From contig JAFTVI010000006.1 in NCBI GenBank assembly GCA_017465825.1, positions 1 to 64,000 on the forward strand: DNA of 64,000 nucleotides. Reading direction: 5' to 3'. Shown piece after piece: positions 7,948-64,000 of this stretch. The DNA comes from Clostridia bacterium. GTDB taxonomy: Bacteria > Bacillota > Clostridia > Oscillospirales > Acutalibacteraceae. Numbering within the stretch: the first letter of the stretch is position 1; each line of letters opens with the position of its first letter. The translations under genes were made by a program, and so were the position numbers. Below the pieces are notes generated by a model. That model ran no database searches and was not told where the DNA came from. It saw nothing but the letters and a program-made list of their open reading frames with translations.

Positions 7948-9189
7948 ATGAATTTAAAAAATATCATTGACAAAAAAGATGATGCCGCAAAGTATATGCA
8001 GAAAGAAATTGAGTACATCATCAAAAACTTTGAAAAGCGCGACCCCGGCTCTGTAGGTGAAAAGCAGTCCTGTGACTATATGGCAAAGGTGCTTAAGGAT
8101 GACTGCGGCTGTGAAACGGTATTTACCGAGTCCTTCAAGGAAAATCCCGGTTCCTTCTTCGGCTGGATATTCTTCACTATTTCATTTGCACTCATTTCAA
8201 TTCCTCTGTATTTTGTATTCCCCGTTGCATCGGTTATTCTCGTTGCAATCGGCTTTGCGATTATGTTTTTCCAGTTCGGTCTTTACAAAAAGGTTGTTGA
8301 CCGCTTCTTCCCAGAAAAAACGGGGCACAATGTAACTGCAATCAAAAGCTGTAAGGGCGAGGTCAAACGCCGTATTTTCTTCAACGGACATCCCGACGCC
8401 TGCTGGGAATGGCCTGTAAACTACGCACTCGGCGGTATCGGCTTTGATTTACATATAGGTCTTGCAATAATCGGTGCACTTTACTATATGGTGCTTGCAA
8501 TAATCAACGTATGCGTAAACGGAATTAAAATCGGTTTACTCGATACATCCTCGGGGCTTTTCGTTGCCGGACTTGTGGGACTTATCTTTGTGCCGTTCCT
8601 TGTGGGAATGTACTGGATGTGGAACAGAAAGCGCATCGTTGACGGTGCAAACGACAATCTCTCCGGCTGTTATATGGGCATAGCCATACTCAAAGCACTC
8701 AAGGATGAAGGCATTGAACTTGAAAACACAGAGGTAGGCGTTATTATTTCGGGCTCGGAAGAAGCAGGTCTGCGCGGTTCAATGGCGTGGTGCGAGGCTC
8801 ATAAGGACGATTACAATGATGTACCTACCTTCATTTACTCATACGATACAATTCACGACCCTAAATATCTTATGACGAACTACCGCGATTTAAACGGTAC
8901 TGTTGAGGTTGACAAGGATGTTTCCGACCTGTTTATGGAATGTGCCGCTGAGCTTGGTATTCCCTGTCAGAAAGGTATGGTTCCTCCTCTTGGCGGTGCA
9001 ACGGATTCAGCCGCATTTGCAAAGGCAGGCTTCAGAGCAACGGGTATAACAGGTCTTAACCACGTGCTTGAAAGCTACTACCACACAAGGCGTGACACAT
9101 ACGACAATATGAACCTTGAAGGCCTTGCAAACTGCTATGCGGTAAGCGTGAAGGTGCTTGAGAAGTTTGACGAAGGAGCAAAACAATAA
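7948..9189 (+). CDS. M28-family metallopeptidase with internal membrane segments
   Basis: This is a putative zinc aminopeptidase. The M28 ligand set is present in order: His148 in NGHPDACWEW, Asp in DGANDNLSG near 233, the Glu pair in SGSEEAGLRG near 270, Asp in YSYDTIHD near 295 and His in YYHTRRDTYDN near 378. Unusually, hydrophobic segments lie before the first ligand (about 73-110) and between the first and second ligands (about 165-225). The catalytic domain is therefore split around membrane helices. A GGAGG lies 10 bases before the ATG. The downstream hairpin at 9191-9212 lacks a T-run. Substrate unknown. Confidence 0.85.
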   Translation: MNLKNIIDKKDDAAKYMQKEIEYIIKNFEKRDPGSVGEKQSCDYMAKVLKDDCGCETVFTESFKENPGSFFGWIFFTISFALISIPLYFVFPVASVILVAIGFAIMFFQFGLYKKVVDRFFPEKTGHNVTAIKSCKGEVKRRIFFNGHPDACWEWPVNYALGGIGFDLHIGLAIIGALYYMVLAIINVCVNGIKIGLLDTSSGLFVAGLVGLIFVPFLVGMYWMWNRKRIVDGANDNLSGCYMGIAILKALKDEGIELENTEVGVIISGSEEAGLRGSMAWCEAHKDDYNDVPTFIYSYDTIHDPKYLMTNYRDLNGTVEVDKDVSDLFMECAAELGIPCQKGMVPPLGGATDSAAFAKAGFRATGITGLNHVLESYYHTRRDTYDNMNLEGLANCYAVSVKVLEKFDEGAKQ

Positions 9190-55891: not shown

Positions 55892-57067
55892 TTAAATCCG
55901 TGCCACGTTTGTTTTTCGGGCGGCTTCTGCGACTGCCTCGGCAACTGCTTTACCCACACGGGGGTCAAAAGCCTTGGGAATGATATAATCGGCTGACAGC
56001 TCATCCTCCGCAATGAGCCCAGCAATGGCATTTGCCGCCGCCATCTTCATTTCCTCGTTGATTTCACTTGCGCGCACATCAAAAGTACCGCGGAAAATTC
56101 CGGGAAATGCAAGCACGTTGTTGATCTGGTTAGGATAGTCGGAGCGCCCCGTTGAAATAACCTTTGCGCCGCCTGCTTTCGCATCCTCGGGAAAAATTTC
56201 GGGATTGGGATTTGCACAGGCAAATATAATCGCATCGCGGTTCATAGTTTTAACCATTTCAGAAGTAACTATATTCGGTGCGGAAAAGCCTAAAAACACA
56301 TCAGCACCTTTGAGAGCATCTTTGAGTGTACCCGTCTGTTTATCGCGATTCGTAAGCGTTGCAAGGTGTGCCATATGCTCGTGAGGGATATCGGGAGAAC
56401 CCTCGCACAAAATACCGAATTTGTCACACAGCGTGATATTTTCAAATCCTGCCGCAAGCAGAAGACGGCAAACGGATGAACCTGCGGCACCGATGCCGTT
56501 GATAACGACTTTCACCTCGGCGCGGTCTTTTTTTACAAGCTTCAATGCATTGGTAAGACCTGCAAGAACGATGACTGCCGTGCCGTGCTGATCGTCGTGA
56601 AATACGGGAATATCGCATTTTTCTTTGAGTTTTTGCTCAATCTCAAAGCATCTCGGCGCCGAAATATCCTCAAGATTTATACCTCCGAAGCTGCCTGAAA
56701 TGTTATATACAGTCTGAACGAATTCGTCCACATCTTTTGTTTTAACACACAAAGGAAAAGCATCAACTCCGCCGAATGACTTAAACAGAACGCATTTGCC
56801 CTCCATAACTGGCATACCTGATTCGGGGCCGATGTCGCCAAGTCCTAAAACAGCACTTCCGTCTGTTATGACGGCGCATAAATTGTGTCTTCGGGTGAGT
56901 TCATAGCTTTTATCAATATCATCCTTTATTGCAAGACAAGGCTGTGCAACACCGGGCGTATATGCAAGGGACAGATCGTCCTTTGTTTCAACCGGAACAG
57001 TTGCGACCACCTCAATTTTGCCTTTCCATTCGCCGTGAAGACGAAGAGATTCTTTTGCGTAATCCAT
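55892..57067 (-). CDS. Malic enzyme (malate dehydrogenase, decarboxylating)
   Basis: This 391-residue enzyme oxidises malate to pyruvate and carbon dioxide. It has SLAYTPGVAQPCLAI near residue 35, VITDGSAVLGLGDIGPESGMPVMEGK near 67 with the catalytic Lys, FHDDQHGTAVIVLAGL near 155, and the NAD-binding INGIGAAGSSVCRLL near 190. The short form without a phosphotransacetylase tail is usual in Firmicutes. Cofactor preference is not readable with confidence. AAGGAG precedes the ATG, 11 bases after fumC. Confidence 0.95.
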   Translation of the reverse strand: MDYAKESLRLHGEWKGKIEVVATVPVETKDDLSLAYTPGVAQPCLAIKDDIDKSYELTRRHNLCAVITDGSAVLGLGDIGPESGMPVMEGKCVLFKSFGGVDAFPLCVKTKDVDEFVQTVYNISGSFGGINLEDISAPRCFEIEQKLKEKCDIPVFHDDQHGTAVIVLAGLTNALKLVKKDRAEVKVVINGIGAAGSSVCRLLLAAGFENITLCDKFGILCEGSPDIPHEHMAHLATLTNRDKQTGTLKDALKGADVFLGFSAPNIVTSEMVKTMNRDAIIFACANPNPEIFPEDAKAGGAKVISTGRSDYPNQINNVLAFPGIFRGTFDVRASEINEEMKMAAANAIAGLIAEDELSADYIIPKAFDPRVGKAVAEAVAEAARKTNVARI

Positions 57068-57078
57068 AAATTTTCTCC

Positions 57079-58443
57079 TTAAACCATTTTTGCAGGGTTA
57101 ACTGCTTCGTCGTATTCTTCTTCACTCAATAATCCTTGACCGATAACGGCATCTTTCAGCGTCAGTCCGTTCTTGTGGGCAAATTTCGCAGCAGCGGCGG
57201 CTCTGTCATAACCGACTTTAGGTGTAAGACAGGTAACCAGCATCAGAGAGCGGTCAAGATAATCTTTCATTTTGTCGGCGTTAACGGTAATTCCGCATAC
57301 ACAGTTATCCGCAAACGAACGCATCGCATCCGCAAGCAATCTTACGGACTGCAAAAAATTGTATGCACACACAGGCATAAATACATTCAGCTCAAAATTG
57401 CCCTGTGATGCGGCAAGTCCCACAGCCGTATCGTTGCCCATTACCTGAACTGCTACCATTGTGACCGCTTCACACTGTGTGGGGTTGACCTTTCCCGGCA
57501 TAATGGAGCTGCCCGGTTCGTTTTCAGGTATATTCAGTTCACCGAGTCCGCAACGGGGACCTGCGGCAAGCCATCGGATATCATTTGCAATCTTCATAAG
57601 GTTTGCAGCAAATGCTTTCAATGCGCCGTGAGCAAATACGAATGCCTCTTTACCTGTCAGCGCACGGAACTTATTTTCATCAGGCACAAATTCAGTGCCG
57701 AGCAATGAAGTCAGCTTATCACAGACTGTTTTGTCAAATCCGACAGGGGCATTAAGTCCCGTTCCCACCGCAGTACCGCCGATTGCAAGCTTGCGAAGCG
57801 GTGCAAGTGAAGCAATGACCATATCTCTTGCGTTTTCAAGAAGTCCCCGCCAGCCGCTGACCTCCTGCGCGAACTTTATAGGAGTTGCATCCTGCAAATG
57901 TGTTCTGCCTATTTTGATTACATCGGGATTTGCATTTTCAAGCGCAGAAAATGCACTTATGAGCCTGTCAAGTGACGGCAGTAATTGCCCCTCAATGGCG
58001 CAGACTGCGGCAATATTCATCGCAGAGGGAAACGTATCATTAGAGCTTTGGGATGCATTGACATCATCATTGGGATGAAGCACTTTTTCTCCTGCAAGTG
58101 CGTTGCCGCGACAGGCAATAACCTCATTGACATTCATATTCGTCTGCGTTCCGCTGCCTGTCTGGAACACGGACAGAGGAAAATTATCGTAAAGCTGACC
58201 GCCGAGAATTTCATCTGCAACCTGTTCGATAAGTTCAGCTTTCTGAGCCGATATCCTGCCTGACTGTCCGTTTACACAGGCACAGGCTTTTTTTAGCGAT
58301 GCAAACGCAGAAATTATCTCCCTCGGCATCGTCACATCACCGATTTTGAAATTCATAAAGCTGCGCTGAGTCTGAGCACCCCATAATTTATCGGCAGGCA
58401 CCCTGACCTCACCCATTGTATCTTTTTCAATCCTGAAATCCAT
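57079..58443 (-). CDS. fumC: Class II fumarate hydratase
   Basis: This enzyme of about 454 residues hydrates fumarate to malate. The opening is FRIEKDTMGEVRVPADKLWGA. Other motifs are GSGTQTNMNVNEVIA near 100, SQSSNDTFPSAMNIAA near 135, GRTHLQDATPI near 185 and the signature GSSIMPGKVNPTQCE near 315. The start is ATG 58443 with GAGGTG upstream. Six longer codons lie before it. With malic enzyme it forms a fumarate-to-pyruvate operon. Confidence 0.96.
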   Translation of the reverse strand: MDFRIEKDTMGEVRVPADKLWGAQTQRSFMNFKIGDVTMPREIISAFASLKKACACVNGQSGRISAQKAELIEQVADEILGGQLYDNFPLSVFQTGSGTQTNMNVNEVIACRGNALAGEKVLHPNDDVNASQSSNDTFPSAMNIAAVCAIEGQLLPSLDRLISAFSALENANPDVIKIGRTHLQDATPIKFAQEVSGWRGLLENARDMVIASLAPLRKLAIGGTAVGTGLNAPVGFDKTVCDKLTSLLGTEFVPDENKFRALTGKEAFVFAHGALKAFAANLMKIANDIRWLAAGPRCGLGELNIPENEPGSSIMPGKVNPTQCEAVTMVAVQVMGNDTAVGLAASQGNFELNVFMPVCAYNFLQSVRLLADAMRSFADNCVCGITVNADKMKDYLDRSLMLVTCLTPKVGYDRAAAAAKFAHKNGLTLKDAVIGQGLLSEEEYDEAVNPAKMV

Positions 58444-58578
58444 TTCGTACACCTCATTCATATGCCGATATTATACATTATTCCGAAATGGTATTCAAGC
58501 ATAAATCACGAATATCTCAAACAAATTCTGTATTGTTCAGTGGTGCCGATACGGATATATTCGTTTTTTAGGTTACCA

Positions 58579-58644: not shown

Positions 58645-59598
58645 TTAATATATTCCTTCTTCATACCATATTCTGTTCATAAGCTCATATCTTTCGAGCG
58701 GAAGTCCGGTATAGGCACAATTGGATGTGCTGAAAATGTATCCCCAGCCATTCATTCCGTCGCGAAGAGAACGGCGGACATCGGCAATGACTTCTTCCTG
58801 TGTACCCGTCTGCAACAGACCGCAGTTAACATTGCCGCACAGAGCAACTCTGTTACCGTAGAGGCGTTTTACCGTTGCAAGGTCTACCCCGCCCTGAGGG
58901 TCGAGAGAATGAAGTGCATCGGGATTGCATTCAACAATCTGGTCAATAATTGGCATAATATTGCCGTCGGTGTGTTTGATTGTATAAAATCCCATATCAC
59001 GGTATTCTTTTACGGTTTTCTGAAGATAGGGTGCAATAAATTCCGAAAACATATCGGGAGAAAAGAACGGATTTACATTAAAACAATAATCTGAACAAAG
59101 TGCAAAGCCGTCAAGCAAGCCATTATGCTTTGCAATTTTTTCGGCAAGGTCCAGCCAATTATCCAGCCGTTTTTGCGCTTCAGCCTTAAGTCCGTCCTCA
59201 TCCTCATACATTCTTTCGGTAAATTCCATCATATTTTCACCGTTCGGAATTTCAAACGTAGGGTCGCCGTGAATCATAAGAAAATATTTATCGCCGGATT
59301 TTTCGCGTATAGTATCAAGCAGTCTGACAATATTTTCATATCCCCAAGGGTTGGGATGAACAAAAATTGCGCTGTGCCGGTATTTCTCCGCAACCTCGAT
59401 ATGGCAATCTGCAATATAATCAATATGCAGCTTCTGTTCGGTTTTGCTCATCTGGTTCCATTGGTCAAAGCGTTGCTGTGAAGGATGAATTTTGCCTATC
59501 GCCTCGAGAGTGAGAAAGAAAACAAGCTCAAACGTGGGACAATGCCCGGTAATAGGCTCTCTTCTGAGAGCTTTTATAAATCGTTCACGTTCTGTCAT
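58645..59598 (-). CDS. Uroporphyrinogen-decarboxylase-fold methyltransferase-like protein
   Basis: This 317-residue URO-D superfamily protein opens TERERFIKALRREPITGHCP. GFYTIKHTDGNIMPIIDQIV has a His-Thr-Asp element, and NPDALHSLDPQGGVDLATVK and LCGNVNCGLLQTGTQEEV close the barrel. In corrinoid systems such proteins pass methyl groups between cobalamin and a thiol or other acceptor. Classical heme synthesis is unlikely, given its neighbours. GAGGTG precedes the ATG, three bases after the activator gene. The substrate is unknown. Confidence 0.85.
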   Translation of the reverse strand: MTERERFIKALRREPITGHCPTFELVFFLTLEAIGKIHPSQQRFDQWNQMSKTEQKLHIDYIADCHIEVAEKYRHSAIFVHPNPWGYENIVRLLDTIREKSGDKYFLMIHGDPTFEIPNGENMMEFTERMYEDEDGLKAEAQKRLDNWLDLAEKIAKHNGLLDGFALCSDYCFNVNPFFSPDMFSEFIAPYLQKTVKEYRDMGFYTIKHTDGNIMPIIDQIVECNPDALHSLDPQGGVDLATVKRLYGNRVALCGNVNCGLLQTGTQEEVIADVRRSLRDGMNGWGYIFSTSNCAYTGLPLERYELMNRIWYEEGIY

Positions 59599-59601
59599 TT
59601 A

Positions 59602-60993
59602 TTACACCTCAAACATCATATTTTCTATAAACAAATCCGCAAATGCAGAATTGCCGGACAAATCAACGTAATCCGCATTATCAGTATATACTGAAAGGTC
59701 ATTCCGACTGCATGCATATTCAAACGTACCGAGCAGACTGCTGTTATTGATCGGAACGCATTTTGAAGCAAGTTCTTTTGGCAACAAGCCTGTTTTTACG
59801 GCATTCCCGATTTTGATTTTTGCAGAGAATCCGCCCGAAATATACATTTTTTCAATATCGTCAAAAGAAATGTTCCTGATTTCAAGCAAGGTTATTATTG
59901 CGGAATATACTGCAGATTTTGCAAGCTGATACTGTCTGATATCTGCCTGATTCAGATAAACACCGTCTGCAATATCAAACTGCTCACATTCCATAAAGCC
60001 TGTTTCGTCAATTATTTCATCAAAAAGTAATTCTGCAATTATATCAACAAGTCCCGTACCGCAGATACCCTTTGCAGGCAGATCGCCTACAGTTTTTATT
60101 CCCGATTCCGTATAGGAGCAGACAGCGCCGTCAGTTGCACTCATACCGCAGGATACGTTTGCACCTTCAAAACAGGGACCTGCAGCCGCCGCAGTACAAA
60201 GAGCCGATTTTTCATCAAAAAGCACAATTTCTGCATTCGTACCAAGGTCAATGAGAAGATTATACCTGCCGTTTGCAGGCATACCGATATAATTCATTCC
60301 TGCAACGATATCCGCCCCGACAAATGCGGAAATTGACGGCAGAGCTTCAACATATTCAACTCCTGCCAGCCCAAGCTCTTTAGCATTTGCAATTCTGCCT
60401 TCAAGAAACACGGGGGTATACGGCGCAACGCCCATTGATGAACAGTCAATGCCGAAAAAGAGATGCAGCATAGTTGCATTGCCCGAAACACAGAGCTTTT
60501 CGATTTTATGCAGACCGAACGCTGATATCATTGAATTAATCTCTGCAATAACTGCTTTGTTGAGTGCGTCAGCTCCGTTTTTACGGCAATAATCAATCCT
60601 TGTCATAACATCAGCACCGTAAGCTCTTTGAGGATTGGTTCTTGTTAGGACTTTAATTATTTTATTTTCATCAAGTGAAACAAGTGCAAGAGCAAGAGTT
60701 GTTGTGCCGATATCCAGCGCAAAGCACAGTTTTTCGGTTATCACTCCCGTTTCAATTGCTCCTGTCACAGAAAGAATTTCACTGTTTTCTGAAAGTGAAA
60801 CAACTATATCCGATTTAATTTTGTATCGGCAGGATAATTCTTCTTTTCCGTTGACGGAAACAAGGCATTTTCTGCATATGCCTTTTCCGCCGCAGGGATG
60901 GTCAATCCCATTGCCCGATTTAATTAAAGCTTCGGATAAAAGTGTACCGTCAGCAACAAATTGAGGTACGCCGTTGATTATAACTTTATGCAT
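59602..60993 (-). CDS. Ferredoxin-ASKHA corrinoid activation protein (RACo/RamA-like)
   Basis: This 463-residue protein restores corrinoid proteins to the active Co(I) state. An N-terminal 2Fe-2S plant-ferredoxin-type domain has Cys in HPCGGKGICRKCLVS and SCRYKI (residues 33-56). After a linker the ASKHA ATPase domain starts near 88 (CFALDIGTTTLALALVSLD). It continues with LLIDLGTNAEIVLFD and CGTGLVDIIAELL, the DUF4445 pattern. The start overlaps the previous gene by eight bases. Its presence supports corrinoid-dependent methyl transfer for the whole operon. Confidence 0.93.
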   Translation of the reverse strand: MHKVIINGVPQFVADGTLLSEALIKSGNGIDHPCGGKGICRKCLVSVNGKEELSCRYKIKSDIVVSLSENSEILSVTGAIETGVITEKLCFALDIGTTTLALALVSLDENKIIKVLTRTNPQRAYGADVMTRIDYCRKNGADALNKAVIAEINSMISAFGLHKIEKLCVSGNATMLHLFFGIDCSSMGVAPYTPVFLEGRIANAKELGLAGVEYVEALPSISAFVGADIVAGMNYIGMPANGRYNLLIDLGTNAEIVLFDEKSALCTAAAAGPCFEGANVSCGMSATDGAVCSYTESGIKTVGDLPAKGICGTGLVDIIAELLFDEIIDETGFMECEQFDIADGVYLNQADIRQYQLAKSAVYSAIITLLEIRNISFDDIEKMYISGGFSAKIKIGNAVKTGLLPKELASKCVPINNSSLLGTFEYACSRNDLSVYTDNADYVDLSGNSAFADLFIENMMFEV

Positions 60994-61975
60994 AAAGCTC
61001 GTTTACCTTTTCAAAATATGCTTCAATATTCTTCCATTCCGATGCGGCAGGGACGTCACAACCCGTTGATATCATAAAATTTTCATAAGCCGAACATTCA
61101 TCAAACACACGCTGAACATCGGCTCTGATATCATCGGGCGTTCCCGTACGGAACAGAACAGGATCGACATTACCCATAACGATTTTATCTGTTGGCAATA
61201 CTTCGAGTGCTTTTTTAAGATTTATTGCATTGCCGAGATGAATAATATCAGCATTGAGCTCCGATATCATATCAAGCATATCCTCTGCAGCATTGCCGCA
61301 GTTATGATAGCAGATAATAAAACCGTCGCTGTTAACGGCATCAAATATCTGCTGAACAAAGGGCATTGAAAATTCTTCCGCAAGTGACGGTGATAGCAGA
61401 CCTGCCGCCGGTTCAGCCATAATAACACCGTCTGCACCTGCCGCTCTGAATGCATTTATGTACCCGATTATAAATTCCGTTGCCTTTGAGAGCAGAATTT
61501 TAACTTCGTCGGGACTGTCATAACATTCCATCATAAGCTCTGTCATATCAAACAGTCTGCCCGCAAGCGAATACGGCCCGATAACTCCGCAAAAAACAGG
61601 AATACCGGTAATTTGTTCTTTTGCTTTTTTTATGCCGTCAATGCAAAGTGCCGTTCTGCCTGCGCCGATTTGCGGAACAACAATATTTTCTGCCATAGAA
61701 ATATCATCTATTATCCCCTCTTCGACGGCGGGGATATCATTATCGTAAAAACGGACTTTTGCGCCGAAGGCTTCCGCTTCAACGGACAGATCCATCATAT
61801 TGAGCGACGCACCTACATTGCATTTTTCTGCAATCGTCTGCATTCCCTTAACCTGCATATCGGCAGATGAAATAAGCTCCTTGACACTTATCCCGAGAAT
61901 CTGTGTTGACGGAAATGACAGAATGGGTACTGTTTTATTTTTATGCTTCAATAACTCTTTTACTACAGTTTTCAT
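60986..61975 (-). CDS. MtaA/MtbA-like cobamide methyltransferase (URO-D family)
   Basis: This URO-D fold protein has about 329 residues. Motifs are PILSFPSTQILGISVKELI, MDLSVEAEAFGAKV, CGVIGPYSLAGRLFDMTELM, GVIMAEPAAGLLSPSLAEEF, CYHNCGNAAEDMLDMI and MGNVDPVLFRTGTPDDI. His and Cys in CYHNCG are plausible zinc ligands, as in MtaA/MtbA enzymes that use methyl-cobamide. AGGAG precedes ATG 61975, which overlaps the previous stop (ATGA). The methyl acceptor is unknown, since the organism is unlikely to make coenzyme M. Confidence 0.88.
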   Translation of the reverse strand: MKTVVKELLKHKNKTVPILSFPSTQILGISVKELISSADMQVKGMQTIAEKCNVGASLNMMDLSVEAEAFGAKVRFYDNDIPAVEEGIIDDISMAENIVVPQIGAGRTALCIDGIKKAKEQITGIPVFCGVIGPYSLAGRLFDMTELMMECYDSPDEVKILLSKATEFIIGYINAFRAAGADGVIMAEPAAGLLSPSLAEEFSMPFVQQIFDAVNSDGFIICYHNCGNAAEDMLDMISELNADIIHLGNAINLKKALEVLPTDKIVMGNVDPVLFRTGTPDDIRADVQRVFDECSAYENFMISTGCDVPAASEWKNIEAYFEKVNELYA

Positions 61976-62508
61976 ATTAACTCCTGATACAGAATGATAC
62001 AAAAATATGTTACGGTGTCTGCGCCGTTATTATAGTTTATTCCCGATTTTCTTGCAAGCTCAACGACGTTTATTCCGCAGGCTTCAACGGAAGGTACTGC
62101 CTTTTCGGGAAATCTGCAGGGTGCATCGGGATATGTACATTTTCCGCAAATTCCGCAACCCTCACAGCCGAGAGCCATAAATTTTACACCGTCGGCATTA
62201 AGTGAGTCAATAATACTTTGCAGAACCTGCTTTGTACATTTCTGCCCTTCAACCATACCTTCAAAATCAAAGCAATCCTCAAGGTCGTATTTACAGGTAA
62301 AAACACAGGCGTTTTTATAGCTTTTGATTTTACGTTCAAGCTCATCCATAGTGCCCACACCCGGCGGACAGGTCCAACAGGTGTCGTATTTTCCGCAACG
62401 GTTGGCTTTGCACATATCAACAACTGACTGAGAAAAAGGAATATTATATGCATCAATCAGTTTATACTGAAAAATTTCGGGATCTGTAAGATACTTTTCA
62501 ATATTCAT
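61972..62508 (-). CDS. DUF2284 metal-binding protein
   Basis: This Cys-rich protein of about 178 residues belongs to the DUF2284 family of predicted metal binders. Cys groups are in CKANRCGKYDTCWTCPPGVG near 32-48, CVFTCKYDLEDC, and CEGCGICGKCTYPDAPCRFP near 115-132. The last resembles a 4Fe-4S cluster loop. Such genes often accompany corrinoid methyltransferase operons. The start is ATG 62508, just after the stop of the corrinoid gene. A role in electron supply to the corrinoid activator is possible but unproven. Confidence 0.85.
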   Translation of the reverse strand: MNIEKYLTDPEIFQYKLIDAYNIPFSQSVVDMCKANRCGKYDTCWTCPPGVGTMDELERKIKSYKNACVFTCKYDLEDCFDFEGMVEGQKCTKQVLQSIIDSLNADGVKFMALGCEGCGICGKCTYPDAPCRFPEKAVPSVEACGINVVELARKSGINYNNGADTVTYFCIILYQELI

Positions 62509-62509
62509 A

Positions 62510-64000
62510 TCAGCTGCAAAGCTCAACGGCGGCATCTGCGGCGCTGGCGGCATCGGACGTATACTTATCAGCGCCTATCTGTTTGCAGAATTCCTCTGTA
62601 ACAGGCGCACCGCCAACCATAATTTTAACCTTATCTCTTATACCTGCCGCCTCTGCCTGTTTTACAACATCCGCCATAACCTCCATAGTTGTTGTAAGCA
62701 ATGCGGAACAGCATATGATCTGACAGTTTTGCTCTATTGCTGTATTTACAAAGGTTTCGGGTGCGACATCAGTACCAAGGTCGATTACTTCAAGTCCCTT
62801 GCCTTCCATCATAATTTTTACAAGGTTTTTGCCTATATCGTGCAGATCGCCCTGAACAGTGCCGATGCATACCTTACCCGTTGACTTAACGCCGTCCTCA
62901 ATAAGAAGAGGTTTGAGCACCTGCATACCCATATTCATTGCTCTTGCGGCAACAAGAACCTCGGGAACATAAACCTCGTTGGTTTTAAATTTTTCACCTA
63001 TTATATTCATTCCTGCAAGCAAGCCTTCATTAAGAATCTGTGCCGCAGGAAGTCCTTCATCAACAGCCTTCTGCACAAGCTCCTTAACAATTTTTGATTT
63101 TCCTCTCTGTAAATTTTCTGATATTTCAAGATAGATACTCATAACAGTTTCTCCTTCATATGTTTTCTGTGACATTCTGTATTGATACGGTGTCATTCCG
63201 ATATACATTTTAAAAATTTTATAAAAAGACGGAACATCCTTCAGTCCGCATCTGCCGACTATTTCTTCATTTGTAAGGCTCGTTGTTTTCAACAATTTAC
63301 ATGCAAGACTGATTCTTATGTTCCTTACATAATCCGCAAATGTTTCACCTGTAACTTTCTGAAAAATGCGGCTTAAATGAGATTTACTTACAAGCAGTGT
63401 TGACGCAATGGATTCAAGAGTCATATCTCCGTCACTGCAACGGTCAAGTATTTCTCTCATAGCAGCAGAAACAGTTATCCATTCCTTCGGATGCTCAGTT
63501 CTGACGGTATCAGCCATATCAATATACCGGCTGACAGCGACAAGCAATAAGGCAAGATGCGATTTAACAGATGCATCCCATTCCAGATTGCGACATTCCT
63601 GCTCGTATTCAATCAAATCATAAGTTTTTCTGAATAAGCTCATAATTTTTGCATTGAACATAGCGTATGAAACCGGAATTTTATCTCTGAATACGCCTGC
63701 GCAAAAATGAATACTTTCCGGATTTGACCATTCGCCGTCAAACAACTCTGAAGGATTAAAAGCAAGTGTACAAACCGTAGGTTTTTCGGTTTCACTTTTA
63801 GAAAAATAACCATGAGGTACACCGCTACCGAGAATGTACATATCACCGATATGACATTCATCGGCTTCGTTGAGAATCCTGTGAATACCGCTGCCGTCGA
63901 CAACAACACTTATCTCAACAAATTCATTCGTGCTCAAGTGAGATAATGTTAAATCGGGATTATAGATGGTTTCATATACCGATGTATTCTGAACTATTAA
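62510..64000 (-). CDS. AraC-type regulator fused in frame to a corrinoid-binding methyl carrier (5' end outside window)
   Basis: The frame is open to the right edge, so the true start lies beyond 64000. The TTG at 63937 is not convincing, since codons before it continue an AraC-like arm. The N-terminal part has a cupin arm (CHIGDMYILGSGVPHGYF) and two HTH motifs (TLESIASTLLVSKSHLSRIF, TSLTNEEIVGRCGLKDVPSF) ending MTPYQYRMS. A corrinoid protein follows with no stop: MSIYLEISENLQRG, helical cap, and the DLHDIG cobalamin-binding His. Exact AAGGAG precedes an ATG at 63142, so a separate 210-residue carrier may also be made. Confidence 0.92.
   Translation of the reverse strand, partial: LIVQNTSVYETIYNPDLTLSHLSTNEFVEISVVVDGSGIHRILNEADECHIGDMYILGSGVPHGYFSKSETEKPTVCTLAFNPSELFDGEWSNPESIHFCAGVFRDKIPVSYAMFNAKIMSLFRKTYDLIEYEQECRNLEWDASVKSHLALLLVAVSRYIDMADTVRTEHPKEWITVSAAMREILDRCSDGDMTLESIASTLLVSKSHLSRIFQKVTGETFADYVRNIRISLACKLLKTTSLTNEEIVGRCGLKDVPSFYKIFKMYIGMTPYQYRMSQKTYEGETVMSIYLEISENLQRGKSKIVKELVQKAVDEGLPAAQILNEGLLAGMNIIGEKFKTNEVYVPEVLVAARAMNMGMQVLKPLLIEDGVKSTGKVCIGTVQGDLHDIGKNLVKIMMEGKGLEVIDLGTDVAPETFVNTAIEQNCQIICCSALLTTTMEVMADVVKQAEAAGIRDKVKIMVGGAPVTEEFCKQIGADKYTSDAASAADAAVELCS
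63142..63157 (-). promoter_or_regulatory. Internal ribosome-binding site and start of the corrinoid protein
   Basis: Inside the fused frame the minus strand reads GAAGGAGAAACTGTT ATG. The spacing is ideal, and the ATG (63142-63140) opens exactly at the family's normal N-terminus (MSIYLEIS). It suggests independent translation of the 210-residue carrier in addition to the fusion. Confidence 0.75.

What the first reader, a model, noticed from the sequence alone, without database searches (positions are those of the whole stretch)
62510..64000. AraC regulator fused to a corrinoid methyl carrier with internal start site
The AraC C-terminus runs straight into the first residue of a complete corrinoid protein without a stop, and an ideal AAGGAG-ATG sits at the junction. 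One gene may give two products: a corrinoid-linked transcription factor that senses the methylation or redox state of its own cofactor, and a free carrier for catalysis. I know of no described system like this.
Basis: partly seen in the sequence, partly recalled or inferred. Interest (0 to 1): 0.75.

Follow-up and report, generated by a model that had tools for sequence, protein, structure and literature searches.

The report
Gene regulator fused to methyl-carrier protein
In a group of gut Clostridia known from assembled genomes, one gene joins a DNA-binding switch protein to the vitamin-B12 methyl carrier of the operon it appears to control, and an internal start very probably makes the carrier alone as well, so that enzyme part and sensor may be the same domain.

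Summary
The gene is 504 codons (its ATG lies 24 nt past the window edge): an AraC-type regulator joined in frame to a complete 210-residue corrinoid carrier, with AAGGAG-8 nt-ATG at the junction. I found 39 distinct fusions in 37 genomes, none with a stop at the junction. Internal ribosome-binding site plus start is kept in 31 and lost in 8. Of the 8, 7 have a separate carrier gene (one frameshifted in its assembly) and the eighth a second fusion with the start; of the 31, 2 have a separate carrier (Fisher 1.8e-5; 6e-4 under the strictest count; not corrected for kinship). B12-binding residues are kept in 38 of 38 complete fusions. A conserved operator (TATRTGGTTTTGTTTC, then inverted ACC(C/A)TATTTA over the -35, 17 nt, TATAAT) precedes most of these operons. 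Two relatives that lost the AraC part lost the operator but kept promoter, carrier and its start. Best reading: one gene makes a corrinoid-bearing activator of its own operon and a free carrier. What the corrinoid senses is inference. I found no published system of this kind; CarH and AerR are nearest.

The parts
62510..64000 (-). AraC-corrinoid fusion gene (504 aa; its ATG lies 24 nt beyond the window, contig C34 position 64024)
   Evidence: open frame and translation; Pfam domains; 38 other distinct fusions
63143..64000 (-). AraC part: N-terminal half, weakly cupin-like (about 63770-63967), and double-HTH DNA-binding domain (63176-63430)
   Evidence: Pfam HTH_18/HTH_AraC; profile hit to cupin plu4264 at profile positions 20-85, E 5.8e-4, weak
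63151..63156 (-). internal Shine-Dalgarno AAGGAG, 8 nt before the internal ATG
   Evidence: sequence; SD plus start kept in 31 of 39 fusions
63140..63142 (-). internal ATG, start of the free 210-aa carrier
   Evidence: sequence; ATG in 30 and GTG in 1 of 39 fusions, lost in 8
62510..63142 (-). corrinoid carrier: cap (62912-63124) and B12-binding fold (62552-62875) with DLHDIG, SALLT and GGA
   Evidence: Pfam; PDB 1y80 E 5e-52; motifs
61972..62553 (-). DUF2284 predicted metal-binding protein, frame overlapping the end of the fusion; operon member
   Evidence: Pfam E 1e-45; found in 23 of the 39 fusion stretches
60986..62002 (-). UroD-superfamily methyltransferase (UroD2; best NCBIfam match PRK06252, MtaA-like, below cut-off)
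   Evidence: Pfam and NCBIfam
59602..60993 (-). RACo/RACE-type corrinoid reductive activase
   Evidence: Pfam RACo_C_ter and Raco_middle; found in 26 of the 39 fusion stretches
58645..59598 (-). UroD-superfamily protein (UroD3)
   Evidence: Pfam. The first operon gene, UroD1 (C34 64056-65189), and the operator (C34 65266-65281) lie beyond the window

Best explanation
One gene, two products. Translation from the first start makes a 504-residue activator: a probably cupin-like half, an AraC DNA-binding domain and a C-terminal corrinoid carrier domain. Translation from the internal ribosome-binding site makes the 210-residue carrier alone, which serves the UroD-type methyltransferases and the RACo activase of the same operon. 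The long form binds a two-half-site operator whose inner half overlaps the -35 box and activates the operon. Its corrinoid domain is probably a substrate and reporter for the operon's own enzymes (loaded, methylated, demethylated or re-reduced by them), tying expression to carrier state. Shown by sequence comparison: the fusion and its spread, conservation of SD plus start, the link between start loss and a second carrier source, conserved B12 residues, the conserved operator and its loss together with the AraC part. Inferred: expression of both products, binding of the operator, activation rather than repression, corrinoid binding in the long form, the sensed signal.
For: Fusion: 30 of 35 AraC matches at E<=1e-60 in whole genomes are fused to the carrier; with the other sources 39 distinct fusions in 37 genomes, none with a stop at the junction. 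Internal start: SD plus ATG/GTG kept in 31 of 39; in six (L112, L118, L174, L176, L180, L182) the SD lies in another codon phase than in the other 25, so the peptide differs. Start lost in 8; the kept/lost label needs 6 changes on the tree, at least 5 by starred branches. Separate carrier gene in 7 of these 8 genomes against 2 of 31 (Fisher 1.8e-5); the eighth (L119) has the start-bearing fusion L118 in its genome. Natural deletions: in L051 the AraC part is a decayed remnant, in L052 it is gone; the carrier stays intact with SD and ATG, dN/dS 0.05 against the window; L052 has no other in-frame start; neither genome has another fusion. Corrinoid in the long form: DxHxxG, SALLT and GGA in 38 of 38 complete fusions, including the 8 without internal start; L107-L108 corrinoid pN 0.14 against pS 0.76. 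Operator: motif information 14.8 bits against 9.9-10.2 in five shuffled sets; inverted half-site with at most 2 of 10 mismatches in 27 of 30 loci, and TATAAT at 17 nt (mean 5.07 of 6 over 30 loci; 1.0-2.9 at the other spacings from 0 to 39); gone in L051 and L052 while TTTATT-17-TATAAT stays.
Against: No expression data. Fisher ignores kinship; the paired sign test on the tree has only 4-5 pairs, none against, p 0.125-0.5. The separate carrier of L113 is split over two frames in its assembly, and the genome of L117 has a second partial carrier piece at a contig end (L145) that I took as the other part of the same gene; counting both against gives Fisher 6e-4. The synonymous-codon test is not significant. 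L175 has both an internal start and a separate carrier. In L051 an in-frame ATG ten codons further up could serve instead of the junction ATG. L183, nested in the clade, is unfused. The operator was not found (score 14.5, 1.7 kb) in 9 of 39 loci, and 25 of the 30 sites found were in the training set of the matrix; the shuffled motif searches had 6 restarts against 12 for the real set. Many genomes are incomplete, so absences are soft.
Confidence: 0.78

Rival explanations
1. Two products, but the corrinoid tail of the long form is a passenger: a regulator gene and the carrier gene behind it lost the stop between them, and the tail has no sensing role.
For: AraC genes of a sister group are joined in the same way to a UroD gene, with an SD-like site plus ATG at the joint (L185, L186), so joining to the next gene recurs. 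L183 is unfused.
Against: Eight fusions have lost the internal start and have another carrier source, yet keep a complete corrinoid domain with B12 residues; L107-L108 show purifying selection on it. A mere passenger should be lost or decay.
Confidence: 0.22
2. The long protein alone is the product; it is both regulator and carrier (a trigger enzyme), and the internal SD-ATG is chance or peptide conservation.
For: Synonymous re-sampling finds no SD excess given the peptide; most first starts picked for the long form also have good SDs.
Against: SD kept in another codon phase with a changed peptide in six loci; SD and start are lost together, and all 8 losses are in genomes with another carrier source; L051 and L052 keep SD and ATG after losing the AraC part.
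Confidence: 0.08
3. The short product is made, but mainly from an internal promoter rather than by internal initiation on the operon mRNA.
For: AerR has both an internal start and an internal transcript (PMC6199135).
Against: The scan over L009 5400-8500 found 5 promoter-like sites against 7.9 expected by shuffling, none of them on the coding strand just before the junction; the conserved promoter lies before the operon. The scan covers sigma-70-like sites only. The short product would use the same SD either way.
Confidence: 0.1
4. Assembly or sequencing artefact removing a stop codon.
For: Draft assembly (37 contigs, 87% complete).
Against: 39 distinct fusions in 37 genomes, none with a junction stop; the 13 relatives share 49-71% identity with the window's protein.
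Confidence: 0.005

Closest known systems
AerR (Rhodobacter; cobalamin-binding photoreceptor with long and short isoforms; PMC6199135, abstract and one Results section read)
   Same: B12-binding regulatory protein; two isoforms from one gene through an internal start with an SD-like site; isoforms act differently
   Different: Isoforms differ by 41 aa; AerR acts on the transcription factor CrtJ (that it has no DNA-binding domain is recalled); neither isoform is a methyl carrier of an enzyme system (recalled)
CarH/LitR (MerR-type HTH with C-terminal B12-binding region; paper abstracts seen in the listing, domain architecture recalled)
   Same: DNA-binding domain followed by a C-terminal B12-binding region
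   Different: MerR not AraC HTH; light sensing through coenzyme B12, carotenoid genes; no free carrier from the same gene (recalled)
MtaC/MtgC/MtbC-type corrinoid carriers (NCBIfam; PDB 1y80)
   Same: Same cap plus B12-binding domain with DxHxxG; sits with UroD methyltransferases and a RACo/RACE activase
   Different: Normally a separate gene (recalled); below the equivalog cut-offs here; fused to a transcription factor
Type 1 mlp gene clusters (Kountz and Balskus, PMC10418091; abstract, whole Results section and find passages read)
   Same: Several UroD-superfamily proteins, corrinoid protein and Ram/RACE together; widespread in anaerobic Firmicutes
   Different: The paper's main text has no occurrence of 'AraC'; whether the window's UroDs are Mlp2/Mlp3 was not tested

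Membership tests
AraC/XylS regulators | double HTH DNA-binding domain | tested here: met
   HTH_18 E 2.5e-19 and two HTH_AraC stretches, above cut-off; solved AraC-type domains E down to 1e-22
AraC/XylS regulators | N-terminal cupin-type effector domain | tested here: inconclusive
AraC/XylS regulators | operator near the regulated promoter | tested here: inconclusive
   Conserved two-half-site motif overlapping -35, lost with the AraC part; binding itself not testable here
corrinoid methyl carrier (MtaC/MtgC class) | B12-binding_2 cap plus B12-binding fold with DxHxxG | tested here: met
corrinoid methyl carrier (MtaC/MtgC class) | equivalog-level score (MtgC, MtbC, MtaC) | tested here: not met
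   MtgC model 206.9 bits against cut-off 370; MtbC 171.1 against 350; MtaC 117.3 against 420
CarH/LitR | MerR-type HTH | tested here: not met
   The HTH is AraC-type; no MerR family among the 4 Pfam hits
AerR | two isoforms from an internal start | tested here: inconclusive
   SD plus start conserved in 31 of 39; the products themselves are not testable with these tools
AerR | no DNA-binding domain of its own (recalled) | tested here: not met
   An AraC HTH is present
Type 1 mlp gene cluster | several UroD proteins with corrinoid protein and Ram/RACE | tested here: met
Type 1 mlp gene cluster | an Mlp2 and an Mlp3 by sequence-network membership | not tested
   reference sequences were not at hand

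The most novel reading that the evidence does not exclude
The regulator senses metabolism by being an enzyme part: its corrinoid domain is methylated, demethylated and re-reduced by the same UroD methyltransferases and RACo activase that serve the free carrier, so the carrier's chemical state directly sets transcription of the operon, and internal initiation sets the ratio of sensor to carrier.
Probability: 0.5. Interest if true: 0.87.

Novelty: new variant of a known kind. Interest (0 to 1): 0.74.

Why it matters
Corrinoid methyltransferase operons are common in gut and acetogenic anaerobes, and how they sense their substrates is mostly unknown (recalled). Here the sensor candidate is the catalytic methyl carrier itself, joined to the activator, with a predicted operator and promoter that make the idea directly testable. 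It is also an evolutionary case of one gene making a regulator and an enzyme subunit through an internal start, with natural 'mutants': start lost where another carrier exists, and regulator lost together with the operator.

Tried and rejected
Artefact of a missing stop: rejected by 39 distinct fusions. Peptide K-G-E conserved for its own sake: not excluded by the synonymous test (p 0.41), but made unlikely by six loci with the SD in another codon phase. An internal sigma-70-like promoter on the coding strand just before the junction: none in the scan. RNA accessibility at the 31 kept junctions is higher than at 243 control places (0.62 against 0.42 unpaired, p 1e-11), but the linker's base composition may explain it, so I give it no weight. 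A wider regulon in the window's genome: the exact 15-mer occurs once (this promoter), and hits with up to 2 mismatches are no more frequent than in the reversed control (43 against 58). The claim that all AraC orthologues are fused fell: L183 is unfused and nested. The apparent carrier-UroD2 fusion in L145 runs through undetermined residues and was set aside. L117 ends at a contig edge and was left out of the B12-residue count. For the second paired test I dropped L126 (same genome as L059) and counted L119 as having a second source. Whole-genome profile searches scored at most 6 or 12 candidates in genomes with more, so some relatives may be missed. Paper searches without a described AraC-corrinoid fusion in their listings: no paper; 3 papers hold both terms; of one, PMC3306737, I saw passages.

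Full report
Observation. The frame 62510-64000 (-) holds an AraC DNA-binding domain followed by a complete corrinoid carrier without a stop. The window cuts the gene: on contig C34 it begins with an ATG at 64024, so the protein is 504 aa. The carrier begins at residue 295 with an ATG that has AAGGAG 8 nt upstream. Its best solved relative is 1y80, a predicted cobalamin-binding protein, over 204 residues. NCBIfam places it near MtgC and the pyl-corrinoid family, below the cut-offs. The N-terminal half resembles a cupin only weakly.

Setting. The operon reads UroD1, fusion, DUF2284, UroD2, RACo-type activase, UroD3. UroD2 matches MtaA-type methyltransferases best, below cut-off. The only other carrier-like protein that the searches found in the window's genome is in an 846-codon frame, the length of a methionine synthase. 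UroD1 starts at C34 65189, beyond the window.

The fusion is real and widespread. The window query brought 52 pattern stretches and 44 loci from named genomes; 12 of the 44 (L040-L050, L059) matched over nearly the whole length and are open across the junction. Profile searches with the AraC part in 398 family, 394 order and 391 class genomes, and 20 and 196 genomes of two further families (overlapping sets; at most 6 or 12 candidates scored in crowded genomes), gave 35 distinct matches at E<=1e-60. Thirty are carrier fusions. Of the other five, L183 is unfused, L185 and L186 are fused to a UroD gene instead, L184 runs to a contig end, and L187 is incomplete. After removing copies found twice (L105, L169, L170, L172), 39 distinct fusions in 37 genomes remain, including the window's. 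On the AraC tree L183 sits next to L178 inside the fused set, so unfusing can happen.

The internal start. At the junction, 31 of 39 keep a Shine-Dalgarno-like site and a start codon (30 ATG, 1 GTG in L181); 8 have lost both: L050, L059, L107, L108, L109, L113, L119, L171. Mean anti-SD energy is -8.2 in the kept set, -1.8 in the lost set and -2.3 at 593 other in-frame ATGs. With the amino acids held fixed, synonymous re-sampling shows no excess (combined p 0.41), so this comparison alone cannot separate an RNA site from a conserved peptide. The separation comes from L112, L118, L174, L176, L180 and L182, where the purine site sits in another codon phase than in the other 25 and the peptide differs.

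A second carrier source where the start is lost. I searched the 37 genomes of the 39 fusions with the carrier (thresholds 1e-25 and 1e-40). Of the 8 fusions without internal start, 7 have a separate carrier gene: four downstream of the fusion on the same strand (L050, L109 and L113 directly, L059 after about 1.3 kb) and three elsewhere in the genome (L107, L108, L171). The L113 copy is split over two frames in its assembly, by error or decay. The eighth, L119, shares its genome with L118, a fusion that keeps the start. Of the 31 with a start, 2 have a separate carrier: L175, and L126, which shares the genome of L059. The genome of L117 has a further partial carrier piece at a contig end (L145), which I took as the other part of the same gene. 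Fisher's exact p is 1.8e-5; with the L113 copy counted as broken and the L145 piece as separate it is 6e-4. Kinship weakens this: the kept/lost label needs 6 changes on the tree, at least 5 by starred branches, which cannot tell gain from loss; the independent-pairs tests have only 4-5 usable pairs, none against, p 0.125-0.5.

Natural deletions. L051 has UroD1, DUF2284, UroD2 and UroD3 at 82-92% identity and in the window's order, but its AraC part is a remnant broken by stops. L052 (79-94%) has no AraC part. Both keep the carrier intact (90% and 88% identical, dN/dS about 0.05) with the SD and ATG. Neither genome holds another fusion. In L052 no other in-frame start lies before the junction ATG, so the carrier must start there if it is made; in L051 one further in-frame ATG lies ten codons up. 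RACo is also reduced in both: only short remnants of 20 and 74 residues match, so the AraC part and the activase decayed in the same two clusters.

The corrinoid domain in the long form. All 38 complete fusions keep DxHxxG, SALLT and GGA at fixed spacing, including the 8 that lost the internal start (L117 is cut by a contig end). In the pair L107-L108, both without internal start, the carrier part shows pN 0.14 against pS 0.76 (synonymous sites are saturated). The domain is thus kept although a carrier can come from elsewhere, which argues for a role inside the regulator.

The operator. A motif search in the 250 nt before UroD1 (19 loci) or the fusion (20 loci) gave TATRTGGTTTTGTTTC at 14.8 bits against 9.9-10.2 in five shuffled sets, which had 6 restarts against 12. 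Thirty of 39 loci score 14.5 or more within 1.7 kb; 25 of these 30 were in the 26-site training set, five were not (L044, L048, L113, L117, L171). The other nine (L046, L047, L111, L114, L116, L174, L178, L180, L181) lack such a site in that range; L178 has one of 20.0 about 1.8 kb before UroD1. An inverted half-site ACC(C/A)TATTTA lies 40-44 nt downstream with at most 2 of 10 mismatches in 27 of 30 loci (10 exact). It overlaps the -35 box, and 17 nt further comes TATAAT: the mean match is 5.07 of 6 at 17 nt and 1.0-2.9 at the other spacings from 0 to 39. In the window's genome the site is C34 65266-65281, the proximal half ACCATATTTA, the boxes TTTATT-17-TATAAT, and the 15-mer is found without mismatch only here. 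A weak -35 under a proximal AraC half-site is the usual layout of an activator-dependent promoter (recalled). L051 and L052, which lost the AraC part, keep TTTATT-17-TATAAT but have no operator (best scores 5.7 and 4.0). Of the 8 start-less fusions, 7 have the main site 52-403 nt or so before the first frame (75-403 nt as listed), and L113 has a site pair 1.07 kb before UroD1. In 31 stretches without a fusion, one site reaches 15 or more (L052 11793, 17.2).

Mechanism. The most economical account is that one mRNA makes a corrinoid-bearing AraC activator and, from the internal start, the free carrier; the activator controls its own operon; and the carrier domain on the activator reports carrier state or loading. 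The first two points rest on comparison of sequences, the third is inference. A passenger tail remains the main rival (0.22). The AraC-UroD fusions L185 and L186, also with an SD-like site plus ATG at the joint, show that this AraC group joins more than one kind of operon protein.

Known systems. AerR makes two isoforms of a B12-binding regulator through an internal start (PMC6199135; abstract and section 7 read). CarH joins an HTH to a B12-binding region (listing abstracts; architecture recalled). The methyltransferase cluster resembles the mlp clusters of PMC10418091 (abstract and Results read), whose main text does not contain 'AraC'. The search for AraC with corrinoid protein found 3 papers in the held library; the other searches bearing on such a fusion listed none that describes it. 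Most subscription papers are not in that library, so this is only absence from the held library.

Verdict. The fusion and the internal start site are confirmed as sequence features, the two-product reading is well supported by comparison, the operator is a new result, and the sensor step is open but testable. New variant of a known kind (B12-based regulators), with a mix of regulator and enzyme subunit that I have not seen described.

Noticed in passing
L185 3604-5538 and L186 7782-9749: AraC regulators of a sister group are fused in frame to a UroD methyltransferase, again with an SD-like site and ATG at the joint.
   Followed up: partly
L119 6289-8979 (-): Triple fusion AraC-corrinoid-UroD of 897 codons, with an SD-like site and ATG before the UroD part but none before the corrinoid part.
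   Followed up: partly
L051 about 8000-8080: AraC part decayed to a remnant beside an intact carrier that is 90% identical to the window's.
   Followed up: yes
L051 10211-10270 and L052 10180-10401: In the two clusters that lost the AraC part, the RACo activase is also reduced to short remnants, as if regulator and activase became dispensable together.
   Followed up: partly
L009 8267-8282 (C34 65266-65281): Operator-promoter of the operon, conserved as TATRTGGTTTTGTTTC, inverted ACC(C/A)TATTTA, 17 nt, TATAAT.
   Followed up: yes
62510-64000 and kin, first start: In 9 of 39 fusions the first start picked for the long form by a simple score is TTG or GTG, whereas 30 of the 31 kept internal starts are ATG; this could favour the carrier over the regulator.
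   Followed up: partly
window 55892-58461: Directly downstream of UroD3 on the same strand lie genes that look like malic enzyme and class II fumarase (by eye; no family search).
   Followed up: no
L052 11793-11808: An operator-like site (score 17.2) away from the methyltransferase promoter in a genome without the fusion; purpose unknown.
   Followed up: no
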